Assembly: GCF_023150065.1 (NCBI RefSeq)
Contig: NZ_JAKLLN010000031.1
Coordinates: 243-42,135 of the forward strand
DNA from: Zoogloea sp.
GTDB taxonomy: Bacteria > Pseudomonadota > Gammaproteobacteria > Burkholderiales > Rhodocyclaceae
Length of the DNA stretch: 41,893 nt
Direction of reading: 5' to 3'
The position numbers and the translations under genes were made by a program. Positions 154 through 9,673 of the stretch are shown piece after piece (the first letter of the stretch is position 1; every line of letters begins with the position of its first letter). Below the pieces are notes generated by a model. The model was not told where the DNA came from. It saw only the letters and a list, made by a program, of their open reading frames with translations, and did not search any database.

Positions 154-423
<270 letters not shown>

Positions 424-463
424 TTAAATTGAAACCGAAACGACTGCTTAAACCTGAAACTTC

Positions 464-1306
464 TTAGTGGCTTTCGTGGGCCTGCCCGATGTACACCAGG
501 GTCAACATCATGAAGATGAAGGCCTGCAGGGCGACGATCAGGATGTGGAAGACCGCCCAGATGGAGCCTGCAACGATGTGACCGAGGAAACCGAACACGG
601 TGGCGGTACCGCCCATCAGCGCGATCAGCATGAAGACCAGCTCGCCAGCATACATGTTGCCGAACAGTCGCATGCCGTGGGACACGGTCTTGGCCAGGAA
701 CTCGATCATCTGCATGAGGAAGTTGATCGGGTACAGCAGCGGATGAGAGCCGAAGGGAGCGGTGAAGAGTTCGTGAATCCAGCCACCGAAACCCTTGATC
801 TTGATGTTGTAGTAGAGACAGATCAGCAGAACACCGATGGACATGCCGAGGGTGCCGTTGAGGTCGGCGGTGGGCACGACGCGCAGATAGGCATGCTCGT
901 CACCGGAAATCAGCGCCCAGATCTTGGGCAGCAGATCAACCGGGAGGAAGTCCATGGAGTTCATCAGGAAGATCCAGAAGAACACGGTCAGCGCCACCGG
1001 CGCCACGAACTTGCGGGATTCGGCGCTATGCACGATACCCTTGGCCTGGTCGGCAACCATCTCGACGAGGATCTCGACGGCGGCCTGGAAACGGCCGGGA
1101 ACGCCGGAAGTGGCCTTGCTGGCAGCCTTGGTCAGCAGCAGCAGGGTGACAATGCCCAGGGCGATCGAGAAAAAGAGGGTATCGAGGTTCCAGACACTCC
1201 AGTCAATGATCGCGGTTTGCGCATGACCGGTGGAGTTCAGGTGGGTAAGGTGGTGGACAATGTATTCGCCCGCGGTCGGGCCGTGTGCTTCGGTGCCAGT
1301 GCTCAT
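464..1306 (-). CDS. atpB: ATP synthase Fo subunit a
   Basis: A 280-residue polytopic membrane protein forming the proton half-channels beside the c-ring. The essential arginine lies in [17 protein letters not shown], followed by the C-terminal helix [16 protein letters not shown]. An upstream in-frame start would add 25 residues (MVGVVYRVG...) that overlap atpI and have no counterpart in the family, so I place the start at ATG 1304-1306 ([16 protein letters not shown]), only 2 nt from the atpI stop. The tight spacing implies translational coupling with atpI. A gap of 64 bp separates it from atpE. Confidence 0.97.
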
Positions 1307-1308
1307 GG

Positions 1309-1650
1309 TTAGGTCTTCACCAAAAATGCAAATAAATTCGCCTTCAGCGCCACGACCAACCCGATAAACAACGCCAACCAATGGACGTCTGGATACACGA
1401 GCTGAACGGTCGCCAACAATCCTACGGTTGACGCGATCTTGAAGAACTCGCCAACAAAAAACTCAAGCGGGTACGACGCGGCCGGGCGCTTGGAGACCAA
1501 GCTGAGGCGCAGGGCGAACAACAAATTGGGAAGAACACAGGCTGCGCCTCCCAACGCCGCCGACAACGCACCGCGCGTCCCTGAAATCAATCCTGCAGCC
1601 AATGCCACCAGGATCGTCGCGCCTATCTGCAGGAATACCGCTTTTAACAT
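1309..1650 (-). CDS. atpI: ATP synthase subunit I (AtpI)
   Basis: A small four-helix membrane protein, 113 residues from the ATG at 1648-1650 ([20 protein letters not shown]). AtpI is known as an assembly factor or Mg2+-related accessory protein of the ATP synthase and is the usual first gene of the atp operon. A longer reading from a GTG at 1743 is possible, but it would put the sigma70 promoter at 1708-1736 inside the coding region, and AtpI proteins are usually 110-130 residues. A GAGAG ribosome-binding site precedes the chosen ATG. Confidence 0.9.
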
Positions 1651-1707
1651 TGGCTCTCTGCGTGGCACGTCGGGTAATGCGCCGTCCGCCGTACGAAAAA
1701 CGTGCGG

Positions 1708-1736
1708 ATAGTAGGGGTTAACCGCAGCAAAGTCAA
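1708..1736 (-). promoter_or_regulatory. Sigma70 promoter of the atp operon
   Basis: On the minus strand, TTGACT (1736-1731) and TACTAT (1713-1708) are separated by exactly 17 bp, a near-consensus sigma70 promoter. Transcription should start near 1701, about 50 nt before the atpI ATG at 1650. This supports the short atpI start. Confidence 0.75.
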
Positions 1737-1801
1737 TCGCCACCGCACCGCAGCATTATTGGACAGGTCGTCGGCATGGGCCCAATTGCCACGCCTGGCG
1801 C

Positions 1802-1837: not shown

Positions 1838-2149
1838 ATGAATAACGACTACTCCCGGGCCATCCCCGAAACCTGGCGTGACATTTCAGCCATCTTCGCA
1901 GCCCTCGGCGACGAGCACCGGCAGCGCATTCTGCTGACCTTCGAGGCCGGCGAAAGGCTCAACGTCGGTCAGATCGCCGAGGTCTCCACCCTCGCCCGCT
2001 CAACAGTCTCCCATCACCTGAAGGTATTGCGTGAAGCCGGCGTGCTCGTCTCCGAGCGGGAAGGCAAGGAAATCTACTTTCAGGTGAATAAGGCCTTCCT
2101 GCAGGAAGCTTTCGCCAAAGTCTCCGCCTATCTCGACGCTTACCTCTGA
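1838..2149 (+). CDS. ArsR/SmtB-family winged-helix regulator
   Basis: A 103-residue repressor with the ArsR fold: DISAIFAALGDEHRQRILL (helices 1-2), then the winged helix with recognition segment LARSTVSHHLKVLREAGVL and the wing VSEREGKEIYFQVNK. The alpha3 metal-binding motif (ELCVCDL in ArsR/SmtB) is replaced by NVGQIAEVSTL without cysteines, so thiol-based metal sensing at that site is unlikely. I start at ATG 1838; an in-frame TTG at 1802 is the -35 TTGACA itself. It is 13 bp upstream of the aas-like gene and probably regulates the whole six-gene operon. The effector is unknown. Confidence 0.85.
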   Translation: MNNDYSRAIPETWRDISAIFAALGDEHRQRILLTFEAGERLNVGQIAEVSTLARSTVSHHLKVLREAGVLVSEREGKEIYFQVNKAFLQEAFAKVSAYLDAYL

Positions 2150-2162
2150 CCGGACCATCCCC

Positions 2163-4301
2163 ATGCGATCAATCATCAAGGCGCTGCTGCGCGCCCTCAG
2201 CTCCCTCCTGTTCCGGGTCAGGGTCAAGGGCCGTCCGCCAGCAGACGCCGGACGACTGCTGGTCGTGGCCAATCACGAATCCTTTCTTGACGGCCTTCTG
2301 CTCGGTCTCTTCCTGCCTCTCGATCCGGTGTTCGTCGTCCATACGGGAGTCGTCCGCAACCCGGCTTTCCGGCTGCTTCTCGCCCTGGTGGATTACCTGG
2401 CGGTCGACCCCACCAGTCCGATGGCCATGAAGAAGGTGATCCGGCTGCTGGAGAGCGGTCGCCCGGTCGTCATCTTTCCCGAGGGCCGCATCACCACCAC
2501 GGGCAGCCTGATGAAGACCTACGATGGCCCGGCCTTCGTGGCGGCCAAGACCGGTGCGACGATTCTTCCGGTGAGGATCGACGGCGCCGCCCGCACCTAT
2601 TTTTCCCGTCTCGCCGCCCACGTCCCGCGTCGTCTCTTTCCGCAGATCAGCCTGTCCATCCTGCCCACCACCCATATTCCGATGCCCGAGGCGCCCACAG
2701 CCCGTGATCGGCGACGCCGGGCCGGTGAGGCCATGCGGCGCCTGATGCAGGAGATGATCTTCGCCACGCGGCCGGACCAGACGCTCTTCACCACCCTGCT
2801 CGACGCCGCCGACATCCAGGGGCATGGCCACGCCCTCGTCGAGGACCTCAAGCAGATCGAGTACACCTATCGTGACCTGATCAAGATGGCCCTGGCCCTC
2901 GGACGGCTGGTCGCCCGGGAAAGCCAGCCCGGCGAGCGGGTCGGGCTGTTGCTGCCCAATCTGGCTCCGACGCTGGGGCTCGTCTTCGGCCTGTCGGCAC
3001 ACCGACGCACGGCTGCCATGCTCAATTACACGGCTGGCGTGGAAGGCATGCAGGCAGCGATCACCGCTGCGCAGATCCGCTGCATCGTCACCTCCCGGGC
3101 CTTTGTGGAACAGGCCAAACTCGGTGACAAGCTCCCCGCCCTGCAGGGCGTGCGAGTGATCTACCTGGAAGACCTGCGGGCTGCAATGGGCCTGGCCGAC
3201 AAGCTGTGGCTGCTGCTGTGGGCGCTGCCCTTTCCGAGGCTCGCAGTCCCGGCCGGCTCGCCGGAAGATGCGGCGGTCGTGCTGTTCACGTCGGGTTCCG
3301 AAGGCAAGCCGAAGGGCGTCGTGCTGTCTCATCGGGCATTGCTTGCCAACGTGGCGCAGATCCGCGCGGTGGTGGACTTCTCCATCGATGACAAGATTCT
3401 CAACGCCTTGCCCCTGTTCCACTCCTTCGGCCTGACAGCCGGCGGACTGCTACCGGTGCTGGCCGGGGCACGGGTCTTTCTCTACCCCTCGCCGCTCCAC
3501 TACCGGGTGATTCCCGAACTGGCCTACGACCGCAACTGCACAGTGCTGCTCGGCACCAGCACTTTTCTCGGCAATTACGCCAAGTTTGCCCATCCCTATG
3601 ACTTCTATCGCCTGCGCTATGTGATCGCCGGTGCCGAAAAGCTCGCCACGCCCGTGCGCGATCTGTGGTTCGAGAAGTTCGGGATCCGGATCTTCGAGGG
3701 GTACGGCGCCACGGAAACCGCCCCTGTGCTTGCAGTAAATACCCCCATGGCCTTCCGCAGCGGAACGGTCGGCCAGTTTCTCCCGGGCATCCAGTACCAG
3801 CTGGTGTCAGTTCCAGGAATTGCGGCTGGTGGCATGTTGCATGTGAAGGGCCCCAACCTGATGTCGGGCTACCTTCGCTTCGAGAACCCCGGCGTTCTCC
3901 AACCGCCCGCGTCCCCGGCTGGTGATGGCTGGTACGAGACCGGCGATGTGGTGGAGGTGAGTGAGGAGGGCTTCGTGAAGATCGTCGGGCGGGTCAAGCG
4001 CTTTGCCAAGGTGGCAGGGGAAATGGTTTCCCTCGAAGCCGTGGAGAAGCTGGCGGCATCGGCATCCCCGGCCGCGGCGCATGCAGCCTCCACCCAACCC
4101 GATCCGGCCCGGGGCGAGACCATCCTGCTGTTTTCCACCGACCCCGCACTGAGCCGCGAGCAGCTCCAGGGCGCAGCCCGCACCGGCGGCTGGCCCGAGA
4201 TCGCAGTCCCTCGCCGGATCATCACCGTCGACGCCCTGCCCCTGCTGGGTACCGGCAAGATCGACTACGTCACCCTCAAGCAGTGGGCCGAGAAGGCCTG
4301 A
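2163..4301 (+). CDS. aas: Bifunctional lysophospholipid acyltransferase / acyl-ACP synthetase (Aas-like)
   Basis: 712 residues, close to E. coli Aas (719). The N-terminal PlsC domain has the HX4D box NHESFLDG (His38, Asp43) and FPEGR (105-109). After residue about 215 comes an ANL adenylating domain with the P-loop LFTSGSEGKPKG (374-385), the core motif GYGATETAP and YETGD. Aas activates a fatty acid onto bound acyl carrier protein and reacylates 2-acyl-lysophosphatidylethanolamine at the inner membrane. No AAS-type transporter domain is attached; the LplT-like flippase is the last gene of the same operon. The C-terminal subdomain includes a low-complexity stretch (SASPAAAHAAS, about 635). 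The function is strong by domain order; the exact substrate is inferred. Confidence 0.88.
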   Translation: MRSIIKALLRALSSLLFRVRVKGRPPADAGRLLVVANHESFLDGLLLGLFLPLDPVFVVHTGVVRNPAFRLLLALVDYLAVDPTSPMAMKKVIRLLESGRPVVIFPEGRITTTGSLMKTYDGPAFVAAKTGATILPVRIDGAARTYFSRLAAHVPRRLFPQISLSILPTTHIPMPEAPTARDRRRRAGEAMRRLMQEMIFATRPDQTLFTTLLDAADIQGHGHALVEDLKQIEYTYRDLIKMALALGRLVARESQPGERVGLLLPNLAPTLGLVFGLSAHRRTAAMLNYTAGVEGMQAAITAAQIRCIVTSRAFVEQAKLGDKLPALQGVRVIYLEDLRAAMGLADKLWLLLWALPFPRLAVPAGSPEDAAVVLFTSGSEGKPKGVVLSHRALLANVAQIRAVVDFSIDDKILNALPLFHSFGLTAGGLLPVLAGARVFLYPSPLHYRVIPELAYDRNCTVLLGTSTFLGNYAKFAHPYDFYRLRYVIAGAEKLATPVRDLWFEKFGIRIFEGYGATETAPVLAVNTPMAFRSGTVGQFLPGIQYQLVSVPGIAAGGMLHVKGPNLMSGYLRFENPGVLQPPASPAGDGWYETGDVVEVSEEGFVKIVGRVKRFAKVAGEMVSLEAVEKLAASASPAAAHAASTQPDPARGETILLFSTDPALSREQLQGAARTGGWPEIAVPRRIITVDALPLLGTGKIDYVTLKQWAEKA

Positions 4302-4322
4302 ACCATCCCGGAAAGGACCGCC

Positions 4323-5153
4323 ATGCGCAAAAAAGCCCTCACCGCCATTCTTATCGCATCGTCCCTGCTGGCCGGCTGCGCCATGTGGTCGGAACGGGGC
4401 AACCACGCCCAGCGCGGCATGGTGGTTGACTACCTCTACCCGAAGAATCCGCAACCCGAACTCACACCGACCCTGCCGGAACTGAGCCTTCCGCTGCGGG
4501 TCGGCATCGCCTTTGTCCCGGGCGACCGCTATGCCGATCTGCCGGAGGCGGAACGTGATCGTCTGCTGCGCCGGGTCAAGGACGCCTTTTCCAACCGGCC
4601 CTACATCTCCGCCATCGAGGTCATCCCCACGGCTTACCTGCGTCCAAAGGGCGGCTTCGAGAACCTGGAGCAGGCGGCCCGGATGTTCAACGTGGACGTG
4701 GTGACCCTGATTTCCTACGATCAGGTCCAGTTCAGTGACAGCAATCGCTTGTCCCTGCTGTACTGGACCATCGTCGGCGCCTACGTGATCAACGGCAGCC
4801 AGTACGACGTGAGCACCCTGGTGGATGCCACCGTCTTCGATGTGAAGAGCCGCAACATGCTCTTCCGCGCCCCTGGAACCAGCCAGATCAAGGGTAGTTC
4901 GGCGCTGGTCAAATTGTCCGAGGCCTCCAGGGAGGCGCGCACAGAAGGCTATCGGCAAGCCATCGACGAGATGATTCCACGCCTCGATGCCCAACTCGAA
5001 GCCTTCAGGACAAGGGTCAGGGAAGAGAAGAGTGCAAAGATCGTCCATAAGCCCGGATACAGCGGCGGTGGCGGCAGCATGGACTTTGCCGCTGTCGGAC
5101 TGTTCGGGCTGGCCGCGGTGCTCACCGCAGCCCAGAGGCGCCGTGCCGGCTGA
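4323..5153 (+). CDS. Rhombotarget lipoprotein with GlyGly-CTERM tail
   Basis: 276 residues. The N-terminus is a lipoprotein signal (MRKKALTAILIASSLLAGC, lipobox LLAGC, lipidated Cys19). The C-terminus is a textbook GlyGly-CTERM signal: a Gly/Ser linker (YSGGGGS, 246-252), a hydrophobic helix (MDFAAVGLFGLAAVLTAA, 253-270) and a basic end (QRRRAG). In the established rhombosortase system this tail is cut by a rhomboid-like protease, and a lipoprotein like this is its adjacent, dedicated substrate. The central region (DVVTLISYDQVQF...) has no enzymatic motif I recognise. A good AAGGA site precedes the ATG. It starts 21 bp after aas, and the rhombosortase GTG lies inside its 3' end. Confidence 0.88.
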   Translation: MRKKALTAILIASSLLAGCAMWSERGNHAQRGMVVDYLYPKNPQPELTPTLPELSLPLRVGIAFVPGDRYADLPEAERDRLLRRVKDAFSNRPYISAIEVIPTAYLRPKGGFENLEQAARMFNVDVVTLISYDQVQFSDSNRLSLLYWTIVGAYVINGSQYDVSTLVDATVFDVKSRNMLFRAPGTSQIKGSSALVKLSEASREARTEGYRQAIDEMIPRLDAQLEAFRTRVREEKSAKIVHKPGYSGGGGSMDFAAVGLFGLAAVLTAAQRRRAG

Positions 5154-5691
5154 ACGACCACTCCTGGCCCTGCTGGTCAGCCTGTTTGCGCTCTCCAATC
5201 TGATGCCGGGAGAGAGCATGCAATTGGACCGGGACGCCATCGCAGACGGCGAAATCTGGCGGCTATGGACCGGGCAGTTGTGCCACTGGTCGAGTCTGCA
5301 TCGGGTCGGCAACCTGGCGGCCATCGCCGCCTTGGCGGTGATGGCCGGAAGGCCGCTGCTGCGCTGGCTCGCGCTGCTGCCCCTCGCCGCCCCGCTGTTG
5401 TCGCTGGCCCTGCTGGGCCTGCTGCCCGAGCTGCAGACTTACCGCGGGCTTTCCGGACTTGTCGCCATGCTGGTAGTTGGCGTAGCGGTGGATGGTGGCA
5501 CGATCGGCCGTGTCGCCGCATTGGCCTGGGGAGCAAAACTGGCATTCGACGCCATTTCCGGAACGCCATCACCGCTCCTGCCCGCAGGCATCGCCACCAC
5601 CTGGCAGGCCCACCTCGCCGGGTTTGTTCTCGGACTGGCTGCCGCCATGGGCTTTCTCCACCTTGACCGGAAGACTGCCTCGCCATCATGA
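5143..5691 (+). CDS. rrtA: Rhombosortase (rhomboid-family intramembrane serine protease)
   Basis: 182 residues from GTG 5143, which overlaps the stop of the lipoprotein gene by 11 bp and follows an AGAGG site. Rhomboid features in order: WTGQLCHWSSLHRVGN (40s-50s, the His/Asn oxyanion region), catalytic Ser104 in YRGLSGL and catalytic His157 in WQAHLAGF, spread over about six hydrophobic segments. It is shorter than ordinary rhomboids, as rhombosortases are. The family cleaves GlyGly-CTERM tails at the inner membrane; the neighbouring lipoprotein carries exactly such a tail. It ends in an ATGA overlap with the next gene, so the two are probably translationally coupled. Confidence 0.88.
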   Translation: MPAERPLLALLVSLFALSNLMPGESMQLDRDAIADGEIWRLWTGQLCHWSSLHRVGNLAAIAALAVMAGRPLLRWLALLPLAAPLLSLALLGLLPELQTYRGLSGLVAMLVVGVAVDGGTIGRVAALAWGAKLAFDAISGTPSPLLPAGIATTWQAHLAGFVLGLAAAMGFLHLDRKTASPS

Positions 5692-6923
5692 ATCGCCGCC
5701 CTTTCATCCTCGGTGCCGCTGCAGCGGCAATGCTGCTCGGTGCCGGCGGTACCGCCCTTGCCCGACGCACCCTGTGGAACCCCTGCCGGGCCAGCCTGCC
5801 GCCAGACATCACCGGTCACGAGATTGTCCGTGCAGCCTGGGAAGGCCTGGACCCCGCCCAGGTGTGGGACTGCCACGCCCACCTGGCCGGTATCGGCGAC
5901 GGGGGCAGCGGCGTCAACATCACCCCGCGCATGCTCAGCCCGTTGCACCCCACCGAGTATTTCCAGCGGCTCTTCTACCTGAACGCCGGCTGCGCCCACG
6001 AGGCCCCGGGACGGGTGGATCAGAGCTATGTGGAACGTCTGCACAACCTGATCGACGGCATGGCCACGGGCTTCAAGCTGATGCTGCTGGCCTTCGAGCG
6101 AACCCACGATGCGCAGGGGCAGGCACGCCCCGAGCTCACCGCCTTCCACATACCCAATGCGTACGCCCGGGATGTGGCGCGAGCCCACCCGACCTACTTT
6201 GAGTGGGCCTGCTCCATCCATCCCTACCGGCCGGATTGCGTCGAAGCTCTGGAGGCCGCGGCCCGTGATGGCGCGCGTGCTGTCAAGTGGCTGCCGCCCG
6301 CGATGGGGATTGACCCGGCCTCCCCGGCCTGTGACCGCTTCTACGCCGCCCTGGCCCGGCTCGACCTGCCGCTGATCACCCATGCCGGCGAAGAGAAGGC
6401 CGTGCATGGCGCCGGCCAGCCAGCCTGGGGCAATCCCCTGCGCCTGCGCCGGGCCCTCGATCACGGCGTGCGCGTGGTGATTGCCCACTGCGCCAGCCTC
6501 GGCGAAGACCAGGACGAAGACCGGGGCCGCAATGCGCCCCGGGTCTCCAGCTTCAGCCTGTTCTCGCGCCTGATGGGCGAGCAGCGCTATGCCACGCTGC
6601 TGTTCGGCGACATTTCGGCCATCAACCTGCGCAATCGCGACCTGGCCGTCATCCGCCAGCTGCTGGAGCGGGAGGACTGGCATCCACGCCTGCTGTTCGG
6701 CACCGACTATCCCCTGCCAGGCATTCTTCCCCTGGTGTCGGCGCGCCAGCTGGCCCGCGAAAAGCTCCTCGACCCGGCAGCGGTGCCGGTGCTGGAAACC
6801 CTGCGCGAGCACAATCCCCTGCTCTTCGACTTCGTACTCAAGCGCCACCTGCGCGCGGGACACCGGCGCTTCGCCACCGGCGTCTTCGAAACACGTCACT
6901 TCTTTGATCGGAAACCTGCATGA
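5688..6923 (+). CDS. Exported amidohydrolase-superfamily protein (Tat-type signal)
   Basis: 411 residues. It opens with a twin-arginine-like signal (MNRRPFILGAAAAAMLL, cleavage near ALA-RR). The TIM-barrel metal-hydrolase ligands are visible: DCHAHL (His63, His65), a strand-end lysine in VKWLPP, His in ITHAGEE, His in VIAHCAS and the catalytic Asp in LFGTDYPLP. This is the amidohydrolase_2-like group; the substrate cannot be read from sequence. It overlaps both neighbours by ATGA junctions, so it is a fixed part of the rhombosortase/lipid operon. A role in hydrolysing a head-group or amide product in the periplasm would fit but is speculation. Confidence 0.75.
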   Translation: MNRRPFILGAAAAAMLLGAGGTALARRTLWNPCRASLPPDITGHEIVRAAWEGLDPAQVWDCHAHLAGIGDGGSGVNITPRMLSPLHPTEYFQRLFYLNAGCAHEAPGRVDQSYVERLHNLIDGMATGFKLMLLAFERTHDAQGQARPELTAFHIPNAYARDVARAHPTYFEWACSIHPYRPDCVEALEAAARDGARAVKWLPPAMGIDPASPACDRFYAALARLDLPLITHAGEEKAVHGAGQPAWGNPLRLRRALDHGVRVVIAHCASLGEDQDEDRGRNAPRVSSFSLFSRLMGEQRYATLLFGDISAINLRNRDLAVIRQLLEREDWHPRLLFGTDYPLPGILPLVSARQLAREKLLDPAAVPVLETLREHNPLLFDFVLKRHLRAGHRRFATGVFETRHFFDRKPA

Positions 6924-8833
6924 GTGCCCGACCGGATCACCCCAAGGACGCCCCTCCCTCCCAGTTTCACCTGCTCGGAGAGAAGCGCTTCCGCCCCTTC
7001 TTCCTGACCCAGTTTCTCGGCGCCTTCAACGACAACCTGTTCAAAAACGCGCTGGTGGTGCTGCTCACCTTCCAGGCCGCCAGCTGGACGACGATTGCCC
7101 CGGAACTGCTGGCCAACCTGGCTGCCGGCATCTTCATCCTGCCCTTCTTCCTGTTCTCGGCCACAGCCGGCCAGCTTGCCGACAAGTACGACAAGGCCCG
7201 CCTGACCCGCCTGGTCAAGGTGCTGGAGATCGGCATCATGGTTGTCGCCCTGACCGGCTTCCTTCTTCATAGCCTGGTGGTGCTGTTCGGCGCACTGTTT
7301 CTGCTGGGTTGCCATTCGACCCTGTTCGGCCCGGTCAAATACGCCCTGCTACCCCAGCATCTGCGCGAGGACGAGCTGGTGGGTGGCAATGCGCTGGTGG
7401 AAGCCGGAACCTTCGTGGCGATCCTGCTCGGAACCCTGTGCGGCGGCCTGCTCGCCGGAGCCCCGAATGGTGATCTGTGGATTGCCGGCGGCGGCATCCT
7501 GGTGGCATCCGCCGGCTACCTCACCAGCCGGGGCGTACCGCCAGCCCCGGCGCCGGAGCCCGGTCTGTGCATCAACCCCAATCCCTTCACCGAGACCTGG
7601 CGCAACATCGGCTTTGCCCGGGAGAACCGGCCGGTGTTCCTGGCCATCCTCGGGATTTCCTGGTTCTGGCTCTATGGCGCCCTGTTCCTGGCCCAGTTTC
7701 CGGCCTATGCCAAAGGTGTGCTGGGGGGCGGCGAAGGCACGGTGACCCTGCTGCTGGCCACCTTCACGATGGGTATCGGGCTTGGCTCGCTGCTGTGTGA
7801 AAAACTCTCCGGTGGCCACGTGGAGATCGGCCTGGTGCCCTTCGGTTCCATCGGCCTGACCCTCTTCGGGCTGGATATCGCCTTCGCCTCCCCGGGTGTC
7901 CTTCCCGCCGGAGCACCCCTGGCCATCGGCGAAATCCTCAGCCAGCCCGGCATCTACCGGGTGCTTTTGGCGTTGCTGATGCTGGGCATGTTCGGCGGCT
8001 TCTTCATCGTGCCCCTCTACGCCATGATGCAGAGCCGCTCGGCACCCGGGCACCGGGCACGGGTGATCGCCGCCAACAACATCCTCAACGCCCTGTTCAT
8101 GGTGGTCGGGGCCCTGGGTGCCGGCGCACTGCTGGGCGCCGGGCTGTCCATGCCCATGCTTTTCGGCGTGGCCGCCATCATGAACGCGGCGGTCGCCTTC
8201 TACATCTACCGGCTGGTGCCGGAGTTCCTGCTGCGTTTCATCGTCTGGCTGCTGGTTCACACGGTGTATCGCCTGCGCACCGAAGGGCTGGAGCACATTC
8301 CGGCGGAGGGACCGGCGATCCTCATCTGCAATCACGTGAGCTTTGTCGATGCACTGGTGATCGCCGCGGCCTCACGCCGGCCGATCCGCTTCGTGATGGA
8401 CCACCGCATCTTCCGCTGGCCGGTGCTGTCCTTCGTCTTCCGTCACAGCCGGGCCATTCCCATTGCCTCCGCCAAGGAAGACCCGGCGATGATGGAGGCA
8501 GCCTTTGCCGAGGTCTCCGCGGCGCTGGCTGCCGGCGAACTGATCGGTCTGTTTCCGGAAGGGAAGATCACCGCCGACGGCGAACTGTGCCCCTTCCGCC
8601 CCGGAATTGCCCGCATCCTCGAAGCCAGGCAGGTGCCCGTCGTCCCCATGGCCCTGCGCGGGCTGTGGGGCAGCATGTTCTCCCGCAAGGATGGCCCAGC
8701 CCTAAGCCGGCCCTTGCGCCGCGGCCTGTTCAACCGCATCGAGCTGGTGGTGGGGCCTGCCCTTCCGCCGGAAACCGTCAGCCTGCCGGGCCTGCAGGTG
8801 CAGGTGGCGAGCTTGCGGGGTGACTGGAAGTAG
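6920..8833 (+). CDS. lplT: LplT-like lysophospholipid transporter fused to PlsC acyltransferase
   Basis: 637 residues with two parts. Residues about 20-430 form a 12-helix MFS transporter of the LplT type (FLGAFNDNLFKNALVVLL near the start, ADKYDKARL in the 2-3 loop). Residues about 440-637 form a PlsC acyltransferase with NHVSFVD (His472, Asp477) and FPEGKIT. LplT flips lysophosphatidylethanolamine inward for reacylation by Aas; in many proteobacteria LplT, PlsC and the ANL domain are joined in one chain. Here the ANL domain is in the separate aas gene 2.6 kb upstream, and each gene has its own PlsC domain. It starts in an ATGA overlap with the amidohydrolase and ends 15 bp from the convergent sod gene. 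Confidence 0.88.
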   Translation: MSARPDHPKDAPPSQFHLLGEKRFRPFFLTQFLGAFNDNLFKNALVVLLTFQAASWTTIAPELLANLAAGIFILPFFLFSATAGQLADKYDKARLTRLVKVLEIGIMVVALTGFLLHSLVVLFGALFLLGCHSTLFGPVKYALLPQHLREDELVGGNALVEAGTFVAILLGTLCGGLLAGAPNGDLWIAGGGILVASAGYLTSRGVPPAPAPEPGLCINPNPFTETWRNIGFARENRPVFLAILGISWFWLYGALFLAQFPAYAKGVLGGGEGTVTLLLATFTMGIGLGSLLCEKLSGGHVEIGLVPFGSIGLTLFGLDIAFASPGVLPAGAPLAIGEILSQPGIYRVLLALLMLGMFGGFFIVPLYAMMQSRSAPGHRARVIAANNILNALFMVVGALGAGALLGAGLSMPMLFGVAAIMNAAVAFYIYRLVPEFLLRFIVWLLVHTVYRLRTEGLEHIPAEGPAILICNHVSFVDALVIAAASRRPIRFVMDHRIFRWPVLSFVFRHSRAIPIASAKEDPAMMEAAFAEVSAALAAGELIGLFPEGKITADGELCPFRPGIARILEARQVPVVPMALRGLWGSMFSRKDGPALSRPLRRGLFNRIELVVGPALPPETVSLPGLQVQVASLRGDWK

Positions 8834-8848: not shown

Positions 8849-9565
8849 TTATCCCAGGTTCTGCTGGGCGAATTCCCAGTTGAGGAGCTTGTCGATCAGC
8901 GCATTGACGTAGTCGGCACGACGGTTCTGGTAATCCAGATAGTAGGCGTGCTCCCACACATCGATGGTCAGCAGCGGCTTGAGGCCGACCGTCTGGGGCA
9001 GATCGGCATTGGCGGTCCTGATCACCTTGAGTTTGGCACCATCGGCCACCAGCCAGGCCCAGCCGCTGCCGAACTGGGACGTGGCAGCGGTTGCCAGCTC
9101 CTTCTTCAGGGCATCCACACTCCCGAACGAGGCTTCGATCTGCTTCTTGAGCGCTGCCGGCGGTTCGCCCCCCCCATTCGGGCGCAGGCTGTTCCAGTAG
9201 AACGTGTGGTTCCAGATCTGTGCCGCATTGTTGAAGATGGCGGTCTTGTCAGCCTTGCCAGCCGTAGCGGCAACAATCTTTTCCAGGGACAGATCAGCGA
9301 GATCCGATCCGGCCACCAGCCGGTTCAGGTTATCCACATAACCCTTGTGGTGCTTGCCGTAGTGAAAGCCGATGGTGTTGGCCGAGATCACCGGCGCCAG
9401 GGCGGAGTCCGCCCAGGGCAGGGCGGGGAGCAGGATGGGGCTGGCAGCCTGGACCGGGCGGGCCAGCCCACCCAGCGCTGTGGCGCTCAGGATACCCAGG
9501 GATGTACCGATGAACTGACGACGGCTGACACCCGTCGGGGACTCGGAATGGAGCAGCGATGACAT
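8849..9565 (-). CDS. sodB: Exported Fe-type superoxide dismutase
   Basis: 238 residues with an N-terminal extension that is a twin-arginine signal peptide ([20 protein letters not shown], with cleavage near PVQA-A). The mature part is a standard Fe/Mn superoxide dismutase: first ligand His68 in [14 protein letters not shown], second His in [10 protein letters not shown], and Asp and His in [15 protein letters not shown]. The [14 protein letters not shown] block matches the Fe type. Most SodB proteins are cytoplasmic, so a Tat-exported copy that folds with metal before export is notable. The start at 9565 is set by a strong GAGGAGAG site; an upstream start at 9601 has none. It is convergent with the lplT gene. 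Confidence 0.93.
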
Positions 9566-9673
9566 GGGGACTCTCCTCTGTGGGATCAATGGGTCCGGCA
9601 AGGGAAGGTCTCGCCGGAGACGGCATTATTCGCCACTCTGCAAGCCTCATGTCATGAATCGGTGCCGATCCTT

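What the first reader, a model, noticed from the sequence alone, without database searches (positions are those of the whole stretch)
1838..8833. Rhombosortase operon fused to lysophospholipid remodelling
Seen: six consecutive plus-strand genes with gaps of 13 and 21 bp and then overlaps of 11, 4 and 4 bp: ArsR-type regulator, Aas-like, GlyGly-CTERM lipoprotein, rhombosortase, Tat-type amidohydrolase, LplT-PlsC. Known: rhombosortase cuts GlyGly-CTERM tails; LplT imports lysophosphatidylethanolamine and Aas reacylates it. As I recall from work on Vibrio, processed GlyGly-CTERM proteins can carry an ethanolamine-phosphate-type group. Inference: rhombosortase may transfer its substrate to a phospholipid or lysophospholipid head group, as a sortase or GPI transamidase does, with LplT/Aas recycling or supplying the lipid and the amidohydrolase trimming the product. 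I know of no description of this as one system.
Basis: partly seen in the sequence, partly recalled or inferred. Interest (0 to 1): 0.82.

Follow-up and report, generated by a model that had tools for sequence, protein, structure and literature searches.

The report
Rhombosortase inside a lysophospholipid-repair operon
The six-gene operon is real: a conserved membrane-lipid repair cluster that includes an unstudied exported hydrolase, into which Zoogloea bacteria have inserted a protein-sorting enzyme and its target; whether the two halves work together is suggested, not shown.

Summary
In detail: six co-directional genes with the stated gaps and overlaps. Comparison divides them in two. The conserved core is regulator–Aas–amidohydrolase (AMH)–LplT(-PlsC): among the 80 AMH loci kept from genome contigs, LplT-type genes are near in 61 and Aas in 33; in 32 AMH loci of a class-wide sample, Aas and/or LplT is near in 13. 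The core often runs on into DUF2339/DUF3999, the families of Arc3A/Arc3B, a published pathway that stops lysophospholipid build-up under phospholipase-toxin attack (PMC8926400). The rhombosortase–rhombotarget-lipoprotein pair lies inside this core in Zoogloea (rhombosortase in 9 of 9 loci, lipoprotein in 8) and in none of 71 other genome-contig loci. Of 42 lipoprotein loci outside the window's family, 3 have Aas and/or LplT near. One, from another order, repeats lipoprotein–rhombosortase–AMH with the same 4-bp overlap in a separate lipoprotein lineage. The link is rare but recurrent. Transfer to phosphatidylethanolamine was already proposed in 2018 (PMC6219818) and is untested here. Most useful lead: AMH as an unrecognised partner of LplT/Aas/Arc3.

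The parts
1838..2149 (+). ArsR/SmtB-type regulator; elsewhere its place is taken by an XRE-type (e.g. L072, L075) or a TetR (L031, L177, L188) regulator
2163..4301 (+). Aas: PlsC acyltransferase plus AMP-forming acyl-ACP synthetase
   Evidence: NF005959 982 bits over cut-off 886; PF01553 and PF00501
4323..5153 (+). Rhombotarget lipoprotein: lipobox Cys19, alpha/beta domain, C-terminal GlyGly-CTERM
   Evidence: TIGR04179 298.5 bits; Cys19 in 50 of 50 aligned sequences; model pLDDT 86
5061..5150 (+). GlyGly-CTERM tail: SGGGGS, hydrophobic helix, QRRRAG
   Evidence: sequence; helix 255-275 in the model
5143..5691 (+). Rhombosortase, GTG start
   Evidence: TIGR03902 86.7 bits, cut-off 84; G102 and S104 in 34 of 34 rows (33 loci), H157 in 97%
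5688..6923 (+). AMH: amidohydrolase-superfamily protein, predicted exported, the conserved partner of Aas and LplT
6920..8833 (+). LplT-like MFS fused to a PlsC acyltransferase
   Evidence: MFS_1 and Acyltransferase; matches part of the acyl-ACP-phospholipid O-acyltransferase profile NF005291, 549.7 bits, under its full-length cut-off 1349

Best explanation
The operon is a lysophospholipid-clearing and phospholipid-repair cluster of the LplT/Aas/Arc3 kind, to which a dedicated rhombosortase pair has been added. Shown: gene content, order, overlaps and conservation. Inferred: lysophospholipids (lysoPE above all) arising in the periplasmic leaflet are flipped inward by the LplT-like domain and re-acylated by its PlsC domain and by Aas; AMH, exported, acts on a lysophospholipid or another product of phospholipid damage in the periplasm. 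Inferred and less sure: the rhombotarget lipoprotein, with an N-terminal lipid and a C-terminal membrane helix, is cut at its C-terminus by rhombosortase (by hydrolysis, or by transfer to an ethanolamine lipid as proposed for VesB) and serves the same envelope-lipid homeostasis, which is why its genes sit under this regulator in Zoogloea and beside AMH or LplT genes in at least two other, separate lineages.
For: Core: 61 of 80 AMH loci have LplT-type genes and 33 Aas; 13 of 32 AMH loci of a class-wide sample have Aas and/or LplT, against 3 of 42 lipoprotein loci, Fisher p 0.0012, relatedness not corrected. AMH and LplT(-PlsC) overlap by 4 bp in 46 of 54 called adjacent pairs. DUF2339 and DUF3999 lie near in 19 and 8 of 71 non-Zoogloea loci (tblastn; one representative of each confirmed by Pfam); these are the families of Arc3A and Arc3B, Arc3A preventing LPE and monolysocardiolipin accumulation, and aas genes are said to neighbour arc3 genes in many bacteria (PMC8926400, passages). 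Added pair: where the pair is absent Aas overlaps or abuts AMH in 19 of 22 called cases, while in Zoogloea the pair sits between them and rhombosortase has the 4-bp overlap with AMH (9 of 10 called). G274 has TetR-Aas-LplT divergent from lipoprotein-rhombosortase-AMH, again with a 4-bp rhombosortase/AMH overlap; G584 has LplT-PlsC-lipoprotein-rhombosortase; their lipoproteins lie in other branches than Zoogloea's.
Against: The pair was found with AMH only in Zoogloea and G274, and 39 of 42 lipoprotein loci have no Aas/LplT in the stretch held (several stretches are cut by contig ends), so the two halves mostly occur apart. Genome-level co-occurrence of AMH and lipoprotein is weak (4 of 369 non-own genomes have both, p 0.045, at an AMH threshold I chose, relatedness not corrected). 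One Zoogloea MAG keeps rhombosortase with only an 18-codon open frame in place of the lipoprotein. The window's own genome has no DUF2339 match, so it is not itself an Arc3 locus. AMH's substrate is unknown; its nearest structures are decarboxylases, lactone hydrolases and uncharacterised proteins. 19 of 71 non-Zoogloea AMH loci have neither Aas nor LplT in the stretch held. The 80 loci are the best of 158 and so lean towards the window's kind.
Confidence: 0.6

Rival explanations
1. One reading: rhombosortase transfers the lipoprotein's C-terminus to phosphatidylethanolamine or lysoPE, LplT/Aas supply or recycle that lipid, and the amidohydrolase trims the product; the six genes are one machine.
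For: VesB of Vibrio carries ethanolamine and glycerophosphoethanolamine on the glycine exposed by rhombosortase, and transamidation to phosphatidylethanolamine was proposed (PMC6219818, passages). Operon layout in Zoogloea and a second arrangement in G274.
Against: 52 of 71 non-Zoogloea AMH loci have LplT while none of the 71 has rhombosortase by tblastn, and rhombosortase occurs without Aas/LplT near in most lipoprotein loci that have it (21 of 23). Attachment to intact phosphatidylethanolamine would of itself yield no lysophospholipid to recycle (inference). Nothing here tests the chemistry.
Confidence: 0.15
2. Chance insertion: the pair landed in a regulated operon in the Zoogloea ancestor and is only co-expressed; the G274, G584 and G070 cases are coincidence.
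For: Only 3 of 42 loci; if 0.2 to 0.6 were expected by chance (my rough guess), Poisson P(3 or more) is 0.001 to 0.02, and leaving G070 out P(2 or more) is 0.02 to 0.12. In G070 other genes lie between, on opposite strands, and no rhombosortase was found in the stretch.
Against: The same lipoprotein-rhombosortase-AMH order with a 4-bp overlap in a different lipoprotein lineage; rhombosortase kept in 9 of 9 Zoogloea AMH loci with near-constant spacing.
Confidence: 0.25

Closest known systems
LplT/Aas lysophospholipid repair (E. coli; P. aeruginosa PA3267)
   Same: Aas over the NF005959 cut-off; an MFS-PlsC fusion like PA3267 as described in PMC8926400 (passages); L031's separate LplT passes NF008397 (393.4 over 297)
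   Different: Has both a full Aas and an LplT-like-PlsC fusion, a predicted exported amidohydrolase beside them, and in Zoogloea the rhombosortase pair; the window's MFS part is under the LplT equivalog cut-off
Arc3 (Arc3A DUF2339, Arc3B DUF3999) phospholipase-toxin defence
   Same: In many relatives the Aas-AMH-LplT core runs on into DUF2339/DUF3999
   Different: The window's genome has no DUF2339 match; the word amidohydrolase does not occur in the paper's main text (its figures were not seen)
Dedicated rhombosortase/GlyGly-CTERM pairs (Haft and Varghese 2011, PMC3237569, section 15 and passages seen)
   Same: Target next to its rhombosortase, one rhombosortase over the cut-off in the genome
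   Different: Sits inside a phospholipid-repair operon; the words lipoprotein and acyltransferase do not occur in that paper's main text
Vibrio cholerae RssP/VesB
   Same: Rhombosortase plus GlyGly-CTERM substrate; possible glycerophosphoethanolamine modification (PMC6219818, passages)
   Different: VesB is a type II-secreted protease; here the substrate is a predicted lipoprotein whose modification is unknown

Membership tests
Rhombosortase (TIGR03902) | Profile match over the curated cut-off | tested here: met
   86.7 bits against 84
Rhombosortase (TIGR03902) | Rhomboid catalytic serine and histidine | tested here: met
   G102 and S104 invariant, H157 in 97% of 34 aligned rows from 33 loci; the assignment as catalytic residues is recalled from general knowledge of rhomboids
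Rhombotarget lipoprotein (TIGR04179) | Profile match, lipobox cysteine, GlyGly-CTERM tail | tested here: met
   298.5 against 150 bits; Cys19 and tail
Dedicated rhombosortase system | Only one GlyGly-CTERM protein in the genome | tested here: inconclusive
   One TIGR04179 match and one rhombosortase over the cut-off, with a second hit of 35.2 bits under it; the 22-residue TIGR03501 search at E 1 gave 3 other weak hits, one at its cut-off, and did not list this protein
Aas (NF005959) | Profile match over the curated cut-off | tested here: met
   982.2 against 886 bits
LplT equivalog (NF008397) | Profile match over the curated cut-off | tested here: not met
   85.9 against 297 bits for the window; so called LplT-like, fused to PlsC as described for PA3267 in PMC8926400
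Arc3 system | Arc3A (DUF2339) in the genome | tested here: not met
   No match in G000, 97.85% complete; DUF2339 near AMH in 19 of 71 non-Zoogloea loci
Amidohydrolase superfamily (Amidohydro_2) | TIM-barrel fold and metal-ligand pattern HxH, K, H, H, D | tested here: met
GPI-transamidase-like or sortase-like lipid transfer | C-terminus covalently joined to a lipid head group | not testable with these tools
   Needs mass spectrometry of the processed lipoprotein

The most novel reading that the evidence does not exclude
AMH is a hitherto unrecognised exported enzyme of the LplT/Aas/Arc3 lysophospholipid pathway, and where rhombosortase has joined, the doubly anchored rhombotarget lipoprotein takes the place of the Arc3 proteins (DUF2339 has no match in the window's genome) as the periplasmic part, its inner-membrane anchor being cut or exchanged for an ethanolamine lipid under the same regulator.
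Probability: 0.2. Interest if true: 0.75.

Novelty: new variant of a known kind. Interest (0 to 1): 0.52.

Why it matters
How Arc3 proteins stop lysophospholipids from accumulating is stated to be unknown (PMC8926400, passages), and what rhombosortase leaves on its substrates is unsettled (PMC6219818, PMC11389362, passages). A conserved, predicted exported hydrolase whose gene overlaps that of LplT gives the first question a concrete candidate enzyme, and a one-target rhombosortase inside a lysophospholipid operon gives the second a simple test organism in Zoogloea, with a direct read-out in lysoPE levels.

Tried and rejected
Rhombosortase as an old part of the operon: rejected; not found in the 71 non-Zoogloea AMH loci from genome contigs (one search gave one 20-bit profile hit, in L088, away from AMH) nor in the 32 class-sample loci L173-L204. 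G274 (L031) is the one exception seen.

A plasmid-borne module: no match of AMH (E 1e-20) or the lipoprotein (E 1e-10) in the plasmid collection.

AMH substrate from structure or sequence: no PDB sequence relative at E 0.01, no NCBIfam model for AMH of the window (E 0.1) or of L031 and L102 (E 0.01); fold matches are decarboxylases, lactone hydrolases, a phosphotriesterase and uncharacterised proteins, which settle no substrate.

Home-made gene calling missed AMH in L086 and L131 and broke down on low-GC lipoprotein loci (one search ended in an error), so the counts use tblastn and profile searches; the junction distances do rest on it.

Recurrent neighbours of the lipoprotein within 6 kb, 41 loci: families in more loci than LplT (3) were rhombosortase (23), antisense shadows of the pair's own genes (17, 7), an ABC-ATPase cluster (6) and an unresolved cluster (4 loci, two of them near-identical genomes).

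Promoter and terminator scan: 2 promoter-like sites against 0.9 expected, 7 terminator-like against 5.0; not informative.

Searches aimed at the orders of G070 and G205 and the family of G584 held few genomes: 5, 4 and 10.

Rows dropped or kept: L035 (lipoprotein match under the cut-off) is kept in the 42; L220's AMP-binding hits (28 to 31% identity), L182's PlsC-only hit and L176's short Aas fragment were not counted as Aas/LplT. The AMH alignment used 57 of the 72 AMH proteins of 385 residues or more (window plus 71); the lipoprotein model used 45 of 50 (L030, L033, L034, L065, L068 left out). Of 61 genomes with AMH at E 1e-30 I followed only those at about E 1e-140 or better.
Full report
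1. What is there. Family searches bear out the labels: ArsR/SmtB regulator, Aas over its curated cut-off, rhombotarget lipoprotein (TIGR04179), rhombosortase (TIGR03902, 86.7 bits against 84), an Amidohydro_2 protein (here AMH), and an MFS-PlsC fusion whose MFS part falls below the LplT equivalog cut-off. The genome held, 5.2 Mb in 251 contigs and 97.85% complete, has one TIGR04179 match and one rhombosortase over the cut-off. The closest named relatives of AMH are Zoogloea (79 to 91% identity in most of 9 loci), from which I take the window to be Zoogloea; it is not named.

2. Lipoprotein and rhombosortase. The lipoprotein has a lipobox cysteine (50 of 50 aligned sequences) and a tail SGGGGS-helix-QRRRAG; the rhombosortase keeps GxS (34 of 34 rows) and a histidine (97%). 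A model (pLDDT 86) gives an alpha/beta domain, a long helix and a C-terminal helix; fold matches are weak and tied.

4. The core operon. A genome-contig scan with AMH kept the best 80 of 158 relatives, a set that leans towards the window's kind. LplT-type genes are near in 61, Aas in 33, both in 33. In Zoogloea (9 loci) all have Aas, LplT and rhombosortase and 8 the lipoprotein; among the other 71, 52 have LplT, 24 Aas, 19 DUF2339, 8 DUF3999, and none rhombosortase or lipoprotein by tblastn; a profile search added only a 20-bit hit to the rhombosortase profile in L088. Many loci are cut by contig ends. Without the pair, Aas precedes AMH in 22 called cases, within -19 to +1 bp in 19; AMH and LplT(-PlsC) overlap by 4 bp in 46 of 54 called cases, the window included. 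By the record titles the loci with Aas or LplT are mostly Betaproteobacteria, with 2 Magnetococcia and 1 Thermodesulfobacteriota; the single Gammaproteobacteria label (L140) is a doubtful title.

5. A less biased sample. In 370 genomes drawn from the class, AMH (E 1e-30 or better) is in 61. I followed the 33 non-own genomes at about E 1e-140 or better: 32 new loci plus G274, already held as L031. Of the 32, 13 have Aas and/or LplT in the stretch (11 Aas, 5 LplT), against 3 of 42 lipoprotein loci used as comparison (Fisher p 0.0012; chosen after the fact, relatedness not corrected).

6. Link to a known pathway. DUF2339 and DUF3999 beside the core (one representative of each by Pfam) are the families of Arc3A and Arc3B of Pseudomonas aeruginosa; loss of Arc3A lets lysoPE and monolysocardiolipin accumulate under a phospholipase toxin, the mechanism is stated to be unknown, and aas genes are said to neighbour arc3 genes in many bacteria (PMC8926400, passages). 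There the esterase gene estA beside arc3 was not needed, so a neighbouring hydrolase need not take part. The window's genome has no DUF2339 match. No paper of the library holds LplT, Aas and amidohydrolase together (the library is PubMed Central papers under open licences).

7. How often rhombosortase joins it. TIGR04179 at E 0.001: 18 of 370 genomes of the class (17 over the cut-off), 8 of 250 of the order, 5 of 47 of G274's order, 5 of 10 of G584's family, 14 of 397 of the phylum, 1 of 5 and 2 of 4 in two small orders (the sets overlap, and the class, order and phylum counts include the window's genome). I fetched all 42 distinct loci outside G000, none of them in its genus or family; rhombosortase lies beside the lipoprotein in 23 by profile search. 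Aas and/or LplT is near in three: L031 (G274: TetR-Aas-LplT divergent from lipoprotein-rhombosortase-AMH, the last two overlapping by 4 bp), L057 (G584: LplT-PlsC-lipoprotein-rhombosortase, LplT-PlsC 71% identical to the window's), and L034 (G070: Aas-LplT a few kb away on the other strand, no rhombosortase found). In a 50-sequence tree Zoogloea forms one supported clade; L031 and L057 lie in other supported groups; L034's branch is very long and its place unsure. Genomes with both AMH and lipoprotein: 4 of 369 non-own (p 0.045). Among specific neighbours of the lipoprotein, LplT (3 of 41 loci) is among the most recurrent after rhombosortase; an ABC-ATPase cluster (6) and an unresolved cluster (4) are in more.

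8. Reading. The operon is best seen as a lysophospholipid-repair cluster of the LplT/Aas/Arc3 kind with a dedicated rhombosortase pair added, in Zoogloea between Aas and AMH. The separate, differently arranged joinings argue for a functional tie, but they are few. What I found in no paper of the library is a rhombosortase system in such an operon (rhombosortase with lysophospholipid: none; GlyGly-CTERM with aas: none) and AMH as a conserved partner of Aas and LplT.

Noticed in passing
L070:9410-9466 (Zoogloea SB3 MAG): In place of the rhombotarget lipoprotein there is only an 18-codon open frame between Aas and rhombosortase, while rhombosortase is kept; a real loss or an assembly fault.
   Followed up: partly
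L119, L124, L099 (between AMH and LplT-PlsC); also upstream in L075, L098: A DUF2145 protein (Pfam checked for L124 only), with a small 134-145-residue protein in some, occupies a slot in or near the same core operon.
   Followed up: partly
L085, L087 (between AMH and LplT-PlsC): A 535-538-residue protein sits in the core operon of Methyloversatilis and a betaproteobacterial MAG; the L087 member has no Pfam or NCBIfam match.
   Followed up: partly
L112, L118, L126: A PlsB-like acyltransferase (GPAT_C and Acyltransferase in the L118 member) lies divergent from AMH in loci where no Aas or LplT was found.
   Followed up: no
L034:7046-7696: A PspA/IM30-type gene lies between the lipoprotein and Aas-LplT in G070.
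   Followed up: no
window 154-1743, minus strand: The operon lies next to divergent genes that read as atpE, atpB and atpI (labels by eye, no family search); AMH keeps this position in several other betaproteobacterial loci (e.g. L100, L103, L114, L130), even where Aas and LplT were not found.
   Followed up: partly
window 8849-9601, minus strand: An iron/manganese superoxide dismutase with a twin-arginine-like N-terminus converges on the operon; it is beside it in 7 of 9 Zoogloea loci.
   Followed up: no
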